Assembly (NCBI RefSeq): GCF_001544355.1
Contig: NZ_BCQI01000008.1
Location: 1-64,000, forward strand
Source: Alicyclobacillus acidiphilus NBRC 100859
Lineage (GTDB): Bacteria; Bacillota; Bacilli; Alicyclobacillales; Alicyclobacillaceae
Length of the DNA stretch: 64,000 bases
Direction: 5' to 3'
Numbering within the stretch: the first letter of the stretch is position 1; every line of letters begins with the position of its first letter. Made by a program: the position numbers and the translations under genes. Of the stretch, positions 1 through 60,755 are shown one piece after another. The notes below the pieces were generated by a model that saw nothing but the letters and a program-made list of their open reading frames with translations, did not search any database and was not told the origin of the DNA.

Positions 1-290
1 CCCGCATAGCGGTACTTTTGTCCGCTATGGCGACGCTCACTCAGCTCATCCGGCCCTCCCGCACCCGCGTAGCGGTACTTTTGTCCGCTATGGCGACGCT
101 CACTCAGCTCATCCGGCCCTCCCGCACCCGCATAGCGGTACTTTTGTCCGCTACGGCGACGCTCACTCAGCTCATCCGGCCCTCCCGCACCCGCATAGCG
201 GTACTTTTGTCCGCTATGGCGACGCTCACTCAGCTCATCCGGCCCTCCCGCACCCGCATAGCGGTACTTTTGTCCGCTACACGTGTCCAT
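1..290. repeat. 63-bp tandem repeat array, left (at least 5 copies)
   Basis: Five copies of the core TAGCGGTACTTTTGTCC begin at 7, 70, 133, 196 and 259, an exact 63-bp period. In every copy the core continues to make a 21-bp dyad, TAGCGG-N9-CCGCTA; some copies extend the arms to CATAGCGG/CCGCTATG. The other 42 bp of each unit are nearly identical between copies. The array starts at the window edge, so its full length is unknown. Because 63 is a multiple of three, long open frames run through it; none has a ribosome site and I do not treat them as genes. The same core and period recur at 60002-60755. Confidence 0.95.
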
Positions 291-27165: not shown

Positions 27166-29799
<2,634 letters not shown>

Positions 29800-29843
29800 C
29801 CGAACATCCATCCTTTCGACTCGATCATACAGACAACCTTATC

Positions 29844-29871
29844 ATTATACTGAGTCCTCGGGCGAATACAA
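29844..29871 (-). promoter_or_regulatory. Housekeeping-type promoter for queA-tgt-yajC
   Basis: On the minus strand, TTGTAT (29871-29866) is separated by 16 bases from a perfect TATAAT (29849-29844), 45 bp upstream of the queA start. Matches a sigma-A type promoter. Confidence 0.65.
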
Positions 29872-29924
29872 AAGGGAGCACGCGTGGGATGGCGGGGCGA
29901 GTGGGTGAGCGGGTGAGGCAGCGG

Positions 29925-30163
29925 GATCGCGCAGGCTTCGGGCCACCCTGGTGCCAAATAAGTTGTCCACAGACGCTTATTTGCAGGAAACCCGTCGAAT
30001 GCACAAATTTAAGCGGCCGAAAGCGGCTTATCGGCTCGATATCGCACCGATCACGCGCGTTTCGAGCCGCTTAAGCCGCCCACGGCCGCTTATTTGCGAC
30101 ATATCATACGATTCGACACGTTTAAGCGGCCAGGGGCGGCTTATTTGCCCCAGAGCCATCCCC
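29925..30163. repeat. 239-bp direct repeat, copy A, with four 21-bp dyads
   Basis: First of two near-identical 239-bp units (291-bp offset). It contains four 21-bp elements of the form TAAGY-N11-GCTTA at 29959, 30010, 30072 and 30123 (spacings 51, 62, 51), with only the 5-bp arms fixed and variable GC-rich centres. No plausible gene: the frame running through both copies has no ribosome site. Lies between the queA promoter and the rsgI stop. Confidence 0.95.
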
Positions 30164-30215
30164 GCCCCCGGCTGGCCAGCCAACCACCAGCCAGCCTTCT
30201 CGACTATGCCGGGCC

Positions 30216-30454
30216 GATCGCGCAGGCTTCGGGCCACCCTGGTGCCAATTAAGCTGTCCACAGACGCTTATTTGCAGGAAACCCGTCGAATGCACAAATT
30301 TAAGCGGCCAAAAGCGGCTTATCGGCTCGACATCGCACCGATCACGCGCGTTTCGAGCCGCTTAAGCCGCCCACGGCCGCTTATTTGCGACATATCATAC
30401 GATTCGACACGTTTAAGCCGCCAGGGGTGGCTTATTTGCCCCAGAGCCATCCCC
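30216..30454. repeat. 239-bp direct repeat, copy B, with four 21-bp dyads
   Basis: Second copy of the unit at 29925-30163, differing at only a handful of positions. The four dyads are at 30250, 30301, 30363 and 30414. In the last, TAAGCCGCC and GGTGGCTTA pair over nine bases (one G-T) around AGG, a stronger stem than its counterpart in copy A. The 52 bp between copies are not repeated. Confidence 0.95.
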
Positions 30455-30489
30455 CGCTAGCCATCCCCCTCCGCCAGGCGCTCCCGCCC

Positions 30490-31398
30490 TTACGACTGGT
30501 TGGCCGCCGCCGGGCCCGTTTGGGAAGATGCCGCGCCAATCGCGCCTTCGACGATGGAAGCGACTTGATCGTAGTTGCCGGTATTGAGACCGGTCAGGGC
30601 CGTATGCAAATCGTGCGCTTCTGCCAAGACCGTCTGCAGATTGGACGAGTTTAAGTCGGCGAGTTTGACAGGAACGCCCACTTGCTGAGCCAACAGGAAG
30701 GTCGCGTATTGCCCCGGCGATACATGCTCATCTTCAGCTTTCATCCACACCTGACGGGGCACATCCATGCTGTACACACTGTCGTCGATGGAGTCCGGCT
30801 GCGCGGAACCTTGTAGAGCTTGGTGAACCGCCGTCACTGCGGTGGTCTCCACGGTGTGCGCACTCGAGTTGTCGGTCGCCGAAGCGGCCGTTACGACGAT
30901 GGTGTCGTGGCTTGGCAGCAGTTTGTTCGTCGCAAGCTTCGATACCACGTCGTCCACTGCGGACTGCAGCGAGGCTCCTTGGAGTTGGAGATTGGAGACG
31001 GTCTGCTTGCCCACTTGGTTCAACCCGTGGACGTCGACTACACGCATGTGTTGATTGACATCGAACGCGATTTGCCCGTTGGCGTCCAACGACACGTATG
31101 CGTAGACATTTTTGCTCGAGTTAGTCGCCACGGAGGTGGCAATCAGGGCACCGACCACGACCACAGCCGCGGCTCCAATCAGGCCCCAACGAGACGAAAG
31201 TCGTTGCAGGGCCCGTCGACGAATTTTCACTGGTCTAAAAAAGCGATCATCCTGAAACGACTTCCAAGGAACCGTGTCTCCAATGGAAACACCGCTTGGG
31301 ACGCGAATACGCTCAAACAGGCCAGATTGCGTCATCACAATTGCCTCGTGGCCTTCGATGGACATGACGATAGCTGTTTCATCTGCGCGTCGAGTCAT
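30490..31398 (-). CDS. rsgI: Anti-sigma-I factor RsgI-like
   Basis: Protein of 302 aa with an N-terminal RsgI domain (residues 5-60: TAIVMSIEGHEAIVMTQSGLFERI), one membrane helix (about 73-95) and an extracytoplasmic part with VYAYVSLDANGQIAFDVNQHMRVVDV, as in RsgI proteins. The outside region lacks the carbohydrate-binding modules of clostridial RsgI proteins. Its start overlaps the sigI stop (ATGA). It is expected to hold SigI at the membrane until an envelope or heat signal arrives. Confidence 0.88.
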   Translation of the reverse strand: MTRRADETAIVMSIEGHEAIVMTQSGLFERIRVPSGVSIGDTVPWKSFQDDRFFRPVKIRRRALQRLSSRWGLIGAAAVVVVGALIATSVATNSSKNVYAYVSLDANGQIAFDVNQHMRVVDVHGLNQVGKQTVSNLQLQGASLQSAVDDVVSKLATNKLLPSHDTIVVTAASATDNSSAHTVETTAVTAVHQALQGSAQPDSIDDSVYSMDVPRQVWMKAEDEHVSPGQYATFLLAQQVGVPVKLADLNSSNLQTVLAEAHDLHTALTGLNTGNYDQVASIVEGAIGAASSQTGPAAANQS

Positions 31399-59817: not shown

Positions 59818-59885
59818 CCCATTGACCCGAGCCATTCGCCACTGTGGAGAAAGCGACGATCCTCACAGACAATGAGGCAGCTTGT

Positions 59886-59980
59886 GATGGTGATGGTGAC
59901 GGTGATGGTGATGGTGATGGTGATGGTGACGGTGATGGTGATGGTGATGGTGATGGTGATGGTGATGGTGACGGTGATGG
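59886..59980. repeat. GGTGAT hexanucleotide microsatellite
   Basis: About 16 uninterrupted copies of a 6-bp unit (GATGGT, with a T-to-C change at 59900, 59930 and 59972). The frames read Asp-Gly, Met-Val or poly-His; no ribosome site fits, so it is not called as a gene. It leads directly into the 63-bp array. Confidence 0.95.
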
Positions 59981-59997: not shown

Positions 59998-60755
59998 CGC
60001 GTAGCGGTACTTTTGTCCCTTATCGGCGGTGGCGCGAGTCGGGCGTCCGGCCATTCCCCTCGCGTAGCGGTACTTTTGTCCCTTATCGGCGGTGGCGCGA
60101 GTCGGGCGCCCGGCCACTCCCCCTCACATAGCGGTACTTTTGTCCCTTATCGGCGGTGGCGCGAGTCGGACACCCGGCCACTCACCTCCCGTAGCGGTAC
60201 TTTTGTCCCTTATCGGCGGTGGCGCGAGTCGGGCGCCCGGCCACCCCCGCCTCATAGCGGTACTTTTGTCCCTTATGGGCGACCGGGTGCCACTGCCACC
60301 CGGCCACTCCCCTCCCGTAGCGGTACTTTTGTCCCTTATGGGCGACCGAGCGCCACTGCCACCCGGCCACTCCCCTCCCGTAGCGGTACTTTTGTCCCTT
60401 ATGGGCGACCGGGTGCCACTGCCTCGCGGCCATTTCTCTCGCGTAGCGGTACTTTTGTCCCTTATCGGCGACCGAGCGCCACTGCCACCCGGCCACTCCC
60501 CTCACATAGCGGTACTTTTGTCCCTTATCGGCGACCGAGCGCCACTGCCACCCGGCCACCCCCGCCTCATAGCGGTACTTTTGTCCCTTATGGGCGACCG
60601 GGTGCCACTGCCACCCGGCCACTCCCGCCTCATAGCGGTACTTTTGTCCCTTATCGGCGACCGAGCGCCACTGCCACCCGGCCACCCCCGCCTCATAGCG
60701 GTACTTTTGTCCCTTATGGGCGACCGAGCGCCTCACCCGCACCTACCCCCAAATG
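59998..60755. repeat. 63-bp tandem repeat array, right (12 copies)
   Basis: Twelve copies of TAGCGGTACTTTTGTCC followed by CTTAT start at 60002, 60065, 60129, 60192, 60255, 60318, 60381, 60444, 60507, 60570, 60633 and 60696; ten of the eleven intervals are 63 bp and one is 64. The first four copies have one flank type (GGCGGTGGCGCGAGTC), the rest another (GGCGACCG), in which CCGGGTG-N7-CACCCGG often forms a perfect stem. The core is identical in all. The last unit runs into the purK stop. Same core and period as the left array. Confidence 0.96.

What the first reader, a model, noticed from the sequence alone, without database searches (positions are those of the whole stretch)
29925..30454. 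Eight TAAGY-N11-GCTTA dyads in a duplicated 239-bp unit
Two 239-bp units hold four 21-bp elements each with fixed 5-bp arms and variable centres; spacing is 51, 62, 51 in both. The arms are kept where the centres differ, suggesting the arms matter. They share the 21-bp length and TA...TA ends with the left-array dyads, a possible hint of a common family. The locus lies between the queA promoter and sigI-rsgI.
Basis: partly seen in the sequence, partly recalled or inferred. Interest (0 to 1): 0.65.

Follow-up and report, generated by a model that had tools for sequence, protein, structure and literature searches.

The report
Helix-phased palindrome arrays between bacterial genes
The two repeats belong to a large family of DNA elements lying between genes in spore-forming bacteria, in which 21-letter palindromes sit at fixed steps of about five or six turns of the double helix, probably as docking sites for a protein that is still unknown.

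Summary
The window holds two copies (97% identical) of an element of four 21-bp palindromes spaced 51-62-51. At least 119 such elements lie in this genome; a lone-dyad pattern occurs 307 times against 35 for the reversed pattern. The geometry recurs across Bacilli: four dyads at 51-61/62-51 in Cytobacillus, Neobacillus and Rossellomorea, and mostly 51-52-bp arrays of 2 to 22 dyads in Cohnella and Paenibacillus. Spacers differ and inner arms are lineage-specific, but arms stay complementary. In listings that did not impose spacing, partners within 130 bp lie only near 5, 6, 10 or 11 helical turns. Arrays favour convergent over divergent gene pairs (27:6, against 61:79 without arrays). At three sites, the congeners that could be measured (8 of 14, 9 of 9, 9 of 9) lack 305-626 bp present here. 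Y1 transposase, which is linked to REP/REPIN elements, is absent here and in G310 but present in 6 other carriers. No Rfam family, and no paper found in six searches, describes it. Best reading: a non-autonomous intergenic repeat built as a helix-phased row of dimer sites for an unknown DNA-binding protein. Binder, mover and function are inferred, not shown.

The parts
29959..30143 (+). Four-dyad element, copy 1 (D1-30-D2-41-D3-30-D4)
   Evidence: covariance-model match 29949-30153, 149 bits (this copy is in the model's alignment)
30250..30434 (+). Four-dyad element, copy 2
   Evidence: covariance-model match 30240-30444, 150 bits
29959..29979 (.). Dyad D1 of copy 1 (left arm TAAGT, so not fully symmetric)
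30010..30030 (.). Dyad D2 of copy 1
30072..30092 (.). Dyad D3 of copy 1
30123..30143 (.). Dyad D4 of copy 1
30250..30270 (.). Dyad D1 of copy 2
30301..30321 (.). Dyad D2 of copy 2
30363..30383 (.). Dyad D3 of copy 2
30414..30434 (.). Dyad D4 of copy 2
30110..30119 (+). GATTCGACAC, the most conserved spacer motif; gives the element its orientation (copy 1)
30401..30410 (+). GATTCGACAC, copy 2
29925..30454 (+). Local duplication of the element with part of its flanks (two 239-bp copies, 52 bp between)
29875..30489 (.). Approximate extent of the DNA present here and absent from 8 congeners (560-626 bp more, between the rsgI stop and the queA promoter region); ends not defined to the base

Best explanation
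It is a repeated, lineage-acquired intergenic element whose conserved feature is a row of palindromes on one face of the DNA. Each 21-bp dyad (outer arm TAAGC, lineage-specific inner arm) would be bound by a dimer of an unknown DNA-binding protein. Centre-to-centre steps of 51 and 62 bp are close to 5 and 6 helical turns, so the four dimers line up and could assemble cooperatively; the element has overall two-fold symmetry at consensus level. Copies prefer the 3' ends of genes and would act at DNA level there, by holding a local loop or wrap that insulates neighbouring transcription units or absorbs supercoils. They spread as non-autonomous units of about 300-390 bp including flanks, with frequent local duplication. 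Shown: the geometry, the family and its spread across Bacilli, arm complementarity, the convergent-gene bias and the extra DNA relative to congeners. Inferred: the binding protein, cooperative assembly, function and mode of spread.
For: 119 distinct elements among the 150 scored matches, a cap. Geometry in listings that did not impose spacing (capped lists, so part of each total): own genome, 50 of 307 sites, pairs within 130 bp at 50-52 (20), 62 (6), 112-114 (14), 2 sites isolated; G310, 69 of 122, at 51 (5), 61-62 (10), 111-114 (17), 18 isolated; a Cohnella genome, 19 of 44, at 51-52 (12), 102-103 (10), 5 isolated. No other distance occurs. The geometry recurs with unrelated spacers in other genera. 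Inner arms stay complementary across 72 named loci, all four pair types at position 6. S1 and the reverse complement of S3 agree at 11.6 of 30 positions against 7.6 shuffled, but no better within an element than between elements (11.9), so the symmetry is not kept by hairpin pairing of the halves. G-U and A-C mismatches are about equal in total (83 and 77). Convergent:divergent 27:6 with arrays, 61:79 without, p 8e-5. Extra DNA of 560-626, 312-390 and 305-337 bp at three sites.
Against: No binder was identified; ten proteins flanking long arrays are unrelated. Within this genome arms are often imperfect: cells paired 87.4% (shuffled 86.2%), and two of five covariation measures show little or no excess. 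The equal G-U/A-C total hides a bias at position 3 of D1 and D2 (34 G-U, 5 A-C), offset at other positions; hairpins used on both strands would also give equal totals. 18 of 69 G310 dyads have no partner within 130 bp. The step could be partly inherited by tandem duplication in Cohnella and Paenibacillus arrays, whose spacers are near-identical. The element finder allowed only steps of 50-52 and 60-63, and the scan required a 51-bp pair. No defined ends or regular target duplications were found.
Confidence: 0.48

Rival explanations
1. A non-autonomous parasite (REPIN or MITE-like): a transposase or recombinase in trans recognises the four-dyad unit, and the geometry is that of its synapse, with no host function.
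For: Dispersed copies 79-94% identical in G015 and up to 97% in G278; extra DNA at three sites relative to congeners; patchy distribution: two-dyad pattern 0 in the 10 other same-genus genomes of the class sample, many in other genera. Y1_Tnp is present in 6 of the 7 other carriers tested and in only 2 of 14 congeners. REPIN clusters also repeat in tandem with their flanks (PMC3116915, abstract and passages).
Against: Y1_Tnp is absent from this genome (a draft, 99.96% complete), which has the most elements of those tested, and from G310. No terminal repeat beyond the dyads, no regular target duplication, no recurring recombinase beside the long arrays scanned. Other transposase families were not tested.
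Confidence: 0.32
2. RNA-level function: clustered bidirectional hairpins that end or protect transcripts at gene 3' ends.
For: Convergent bias. At the L061 site congeners carry simple terminator-like inverted repeats where this genome has the element. GC-rich stems with AAATAAGC...GCTTATTT edges in this genome. G-U excess at position 3 of D1 and D2.
Against: 0 terminator-like sites in the window stretch, 0.9 in shuffles; many Cohnella and Paenibacillus dyads lack a T tract; RNAalifold found one weak stem; no overall strand bias; orientation relative to tandem genes 13 same, 11 opposite (read); a fixed 51/62 step has no obvious reason in RNA.
Confidence: 0.17
3. Ordinary tandem duplication of junk sequence, with the palindromes incidental.
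For: The window copies are a local duplication with 97% identity, and minisatellites abut many elements of this genome.
Against: Geometry and arm complementarity recur in unrelated sequences of other genera.
Confidence: 0.03

Closest known systems
REP / BIME / REPIN elements with RAYT transposases
   Same: Short palindromes in fixed pairs, extragenic, high copy, tandem repeats including flanks, presumed non-autonomous (PMC3116915, abstract and passages; BIME from recall)
   Different: Four dyads at 51-62-51 or open-ended 51-bp arrays; each dyad palindromic on its own; no Y1 transposase in this genome or G310, though present in six other carriers; no pairing covariation between the halves
Stem-loop repeat families of Firmicutes (e.g. 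Bhal-1 of 74 bp, Bcr1 of 167 bp)
   Same: Intergenic structured repeats in Bacillus (PMC2267715, passages only)
   Different: Sequences were not compared; the passages seen describe no phased multi-dyad geometry
CRISPR arrays
   Same: About 21-bp palindromic units with 30-bp spacers at a constant period
   Different: Spacers alike and repeats variable, the opposite of CRISPR; four units in many genera; no cas family among ten flanking proteins scanned
Bidirectional intrinsic terminators
   Same: Preference for 3' ends of genes; inverted repeats
   Different: Several units at helical spacing; no T tract in many genera

Membership tests
REP/REPIN-RAYT | Y1 (RAYT) transposase encoded in the genome | tested here: not met
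   PF01797: 0 matches in G000 and G310; but matches in G015, G170, G278, G180, G255, G161, i.e. 6 of 7 other carriers, and in 2 of 14 congeners (8 of 22 genomes). Not tested whether those are RAYTs.
REP/REPIN-RAYT | Halves of the unit pair into a hairpin with compensatory change | tested here: not met
   S1 against reverse complement of S3: 11.6 of 30 in the same element, 11.9 in different elements, 7.6 shuffled (37 of 44 elements)
REP/REPIN-RAYT | Extragenic, high copy, dispersed | tested here: met
   119 elements, a lower bound; 28 of 43 clusters overlap a mechanical ORF call that I take as spurious
MITE | Terminal inverted repeats, target-site duplication, related full-length transposon | tested here: inconclusive
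   No constant ends in duplicated or dispersed copies; direct flank repeats in 2 of 27 single elements; no search for a parent transposon
CRISPR array | Near-identical repeats with unique spacers | tested here: not met
   Repeats vary and spacers are shared
Any Rfam family | Covariance-model match above gathering score | tested here: not met
   Window stretch 29800-30520: one hit of 21 bits against a cut-off of 82; 17 other loci: only an FMN riboswitch and a 6S RNA
Intrinsic terminator | GC-rich stem followed by a T tract | tested here: not met
   0 sites in 29780-30560, 0.9 in shuffles; the scan may miss stems that include the T tract

The most novel reading that the evidence does not exclude
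A class-wide DNA-architecture system of Bacilli: intergenic arrays of lineage-specific palindromes set at whole helical turns, read by a co-evolving dimeric protein that polymerises on or wraps DNA at 3' ends of genes, with spacing rather than sequence under selection.
Probability: 0.3. Interest if true: 0.9.

Novelty: new variant of a known kind. Interest (0 to 1): 0.72.

Why it matters
Interspersed palindromic repeats are usually defined by sequence. Here geometry stays constant across genera while spacers and inner arms change, which gives a direct handle on the binder: a half-turn insertion should destroy function. The arrays are common in some soil Bacilli, can carry spurious hypothetical-protein ORFs, and offer a testable element at the 3' ends of genes.

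Tried and rejected
Y1/RAYT as the necessary mover: not supported, since Y1_Tnp is absent from G000 and G310, but not excluded, because 6 of 7 other carriers have it. On re-reading that table I lowered the best reading from 0.50 to 0.48 and raised the parasite rival from 0.30 to 0.32. Conserved RNA: RNAalifold gave one weak stem, Rfam nothing relevant. Whole-element hairpin: the window copy folds well (z -6.7 as DNA, -6.4 as RNA), but the halves do not covary. Fixed transposon ends: 11 of 13 duplicated pairs gave usable extents, 8-88 bp left and 5-65 bp right of the dyads (L047 and L060 aligned only to themselves and were set aside). Minisatellite flanks as a general feature: true here, 43 of 74 flanks against 2 of 74 pieces 600 bp away, 5 of 74 shuffled and 6 of 87 element-free intergenic pieces, but not elsewhere: named loci 4 of 143 (control 1 of 122), five genomes of other families 0 of 32, G015 0 of 4, G310 4 of 12 (control 0 of 12). 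Partner gene beside long arrays: ten proteins scanned, none recurring. BLASTN of the 239-bp unit: 0 of 40 relatives and no plasmid record. Six paper searches: listings showed no description of this family; most subscription papers are not held. Rows dropped: L184 and L240 (contigs labelled outside Bacillota); twelve elements (tandem duplicates, and L068_1834 and L078_1894) before alignment A1 (44 of 56 used); the window and L169-L172 were not in the count. G001, G004, G006, G007 and G012 were not given.

Full report
Observation. By shuffling, 0.07 matches to the pattern are expected in the window and 15 are found, counting both strands. The flanking genes are queA on one side and rsgI-sigI on the other, all on the minus strand.

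Extent in the genome. A pattern for a lone dyad (TAAGY-N11-RCTTA) occurs 307 times in the 3.86-Mb draft against 35 for the reversed pattern. In 41 stretches (window plus 40 loci) a script found 56 four-dyad elements: 38 at 51-62-51, the rest within 1 bp per step; the script allowed steps of 50-52 and 60-63 only. The consensus is GGGCAAA-D1-30 nt-D2-41 nt-D3-30 nt-D4-TTTGCC, and the motif GATTCGACACACT before D4 gives an orientation. A covariance model of 44 of them scored 150 places, a cap out of 1,044 candidates; without opposite-strand duplicates these are 119 distinct elements, a lower bound.

Geometry across Bacilli. A two-dyad pattern (30-nt spacer, up to 2 mismatches) hits 9 of 299 genomes of the class: this genome 202 times per strand, G310 25, G015 23, G170 6, G278 5, and G104, G161, G180 and G255 once each. 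G104 shows no palindromes there and looks like chance. The reversed pattern hits 6 of the 299 genomes (1, 1, 1, 1, 1 and 4 times), so single hits alone prove little; at the single hits of G161, G180 and G255 the dyads are palindromic with 51-bp partners. With the model, 9 of 15 chosen genomes match, both strands counted: G310 109, G015 94, G180 19, G278 16, G170 12, G012 4, G161 3, G255 1, G006 1. G001, G002, G004, G007, G009 and G014 have none; the G006 and G012 matches were not examined. The second of these two has a true 51-bp dyad pair; the first gave no palindromic pair. By script, chains with a six-turn step are 10 of 10 in Cytobacillus, 6 of 6 in Neobacillus (some perhaps chance), 4 of 4 in Rossellomorea, 1 of 26 in Cohnella and 4 of 28 in Paenibacillus; the remaining Cohnella and Paenibacillus chains, of 2 to 22 dyads, have five-turn steps only, sometimes with a skipped dyad. 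So the split by family is strong but not strict. One search demanded a 51-bp pair, so the unbiased test is the lone-dyad lists, which were capped: 50 of 307 sites here, 69 of 122 in G310, 19 of 44 in a Cohnella genome. Within 130 bp, partners occur only at 50-52, 61-62, 102-103 and 111-114. The lone-dyad pattern is enriched in G310 (122 against 9) and the Cohnella genome (44 against 15), not in G009 (0 against 5), G001 (2 against 11) or G278, whose arms vary (4 against 2). Steps of 51, 62 and 113 are 5, 6 and 11 turns at 10.2-10.3 bp per turn (arithmetic).

Arms and symmetry. Across 72 named loci, with dyads chosen only by outer TA(A/G)GC...GC(T/C)TA arms and by spacing, the inner pairs at positions 6, 7, 8 and 9 are complementary in 125, 150, 138 and 82 of 179 dyads; shuffling gives 54.5, 74.0, 66.6 and 49.5. 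Relatedness inflates such scores, but at position 6 all four pair types occur. Within this genome the signal is weaker: cells paired 87.4% against 86.2% shuffled (1 of 500 shuffles as high), both-side changes 46 against 31 (0 of 500), covariation score 0.131 against 0.110 (0 of 500), while pairs with both-side change (12 against 11.7) and further pair types (37 against 34.4) show little or no excess. G-U and A-C mismatches total 83 and 77, which is not expected of a hairpin used on one RNA strand; but position 3 of D1 and D2 is skewed (34 against 5) and other positions offset it, and hairpins used on both strands would also balance. The window copy folds very well, yet the two halves of an element are no more complementary to each other than to halves of other elements. 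I read this as a consensus-level two-fold symmetry, as a protein complex would read it.

Position. In this genome's 43 clusters the neighbouring ORF calls are 24 tandem, 11 convergent, 4 divergent and 4 at contig ends; 28 of the 43 overlap an ORF call of 90 aa or more (93-247 aa, one 636 aa), which I take as spurious. Pooled over own, unnamed and named loci with one ORF caller, intervals with arrays are 43 tandem, 27 convergent and 6 divergent; intervals without arrays in the same loci are 202, 61 and 79 (Fisher p 8e-5 for convergent against divergent). Several loci come from one species, so they are not fully independent. In the named loci 46 arrays could be placed, 35 lay too near an edge, and 7 fell inside ORF calls of 130 aa or more. 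Of ten proteins beside long arrays, five are enzymes of different families, one an AraC-type regulator, one a GAF-HD protein, one a penicillin-binding protein, and two have no match.

Extra DNA in this lineage. At the window site, 8 of 14 congeners have both gene matches adjacent: the gap is 103-183 bp against 729-749 bp here, 560-626 bp more for two elements. Four others match only queA; in two the rsgI match is elsewhere. The queA promoter region is kept, and the extra DNA lies between it and the rsgI stop. At the L061 site 9 of 9 congeners given have 73-166 bp against 463-500 here, 312-390 bp more, and simple terminator-like inverted repeats stand there instead. At the L055 site 9 of 9 are 305-337 bp shorter by the nearest aligned blocks, some short or distant. 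Gain here, rather than repeated loss in all of these, is the simpler reading. One unit is thus about 300-390 bp, more than the 185-bp dyad core; the rest is flank, G-rich on the left (45% G) and C-rich on the right (45% C) in 27 single elements. No exact ends or regular target duplications could be defined. In G015 the compared copies are 79-94% identical; in G278 up to 97%, with three copies sharing a longer segment of about 670 bp.

Special to this genome. Locus-specific minisatellites lie within 100 bp of 43 of 74 element edges, against 2 of 74 pieces 600 bp away, 5 of 74 shuffled flanks and 6 of 87 element-free intergenic pieces. G310 shows 4 of 12; named loci 4 of 143. With the local duplications of whole elements this suggests that the element, or what binds it, provokes slippage or breakage nearby. 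That is an inference.

A sister family. The window's other arrays (7-279 and 60002-60716) are 21-bp dyads, TA(A/G)CGGNACTTTTGTCCNNTA, at a 63-bp step. Genome-wide, with up to 1 mismatch, there are 77 sites (46 forward, 31 reverse) against 0 in the control; neighbouring sites are 63 bp apart 48 times, 64 twice, 52 twice. Of 23 clusters, 7 lie 44-76 bp from a match to the four-dyad model, 8 lie more than 2.9 kb away, and 8 are on contigs without a listed match.

The mover. REPINs are linked to Y1 transposases (PMC3116915, passages). PF01797 has no match here or in G310, but matches in G015 (several broken), G170, G278, G180, G255 and G161, and in 2 of 14 congeners. A Y1 protein is therefore not needed to keep the arrays, but a past or partial role is not excluded.

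Verdict. The sequence facts are firm. That whole-turn spacing means a protein-bound, DNA-level device is the most economical reading, at about even odds as a full mechanism. A transposase-driven parasite and an RNA 3'-end device remain open. As far as my searches go (Rfam, six full-text paper searches) it is undescribed, and it is best filed as a new variant of interspersed palindromic repeats. Family names of genera, and the terms BIME and HIP1, are from recall.

Noticed in passing
window 7-279 and 60002-60716: Second dyad family TA(A/G)CGGNACTTTTGTCCNNTA in 63-bp tandem arrays; 77 genome sites (up to 1 mismatch) against 0 in the control; 7 of 23 clusters adjoin four-dyad elements; several lie at contig ends.
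   Followed up: partly
own genome, edges of four-dyad elements (e.g. L054, L055, L064, L077, L080): Locus-specific minisatellites (period 4-42) abut 43 of 74 element edges; flanks are G-rich on the left and C-rich on the right.
   Followed up: partly
window 59884-59980: (GTGATG)16 hexanucleotide repeat directly before the 63-bp array.
   Followed up: no
L061 1755-1781 and 2073-2099: A 27-bp perfect direct repeat flanks the element (ends 77 bp before it, starts 29 bp after it); the strongest of 27 single elements.
   Followed up: partly
L061 orthologues L291-L299: Congeners carry simple GC-rich inverted repeats, terminator-like, where this genome has the four-dyad element.
   Followed up: partly
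G015, G170, G278, G180, G255, G161: Y1_Tnp matches in 6 of 7 other carrier genomes but in only 2 of 14 congeners of the window's genome; whether they are RAYTs with arrays beside them was not looked at.
   Followed up: no
flanks in several own loci (e.g. L058, L070, L081, L082): GCGATCGC, known to me from memory as the HIP1 palindrome of cyanobacteria, recurs in element flanks; frequency not tested.
   Followed up: no
window 29951-30460: A 169-aa ORF runs over both elements and is probably spurious; such ORFs may be annotated as hypothetical proteins in carriers.
   Followed up: no
L240 5994-6065: A 51-bp dyad pair in a contig labelled Solirubrobacterales; perhaps a binning error or a real outlier.
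   Followed up: no
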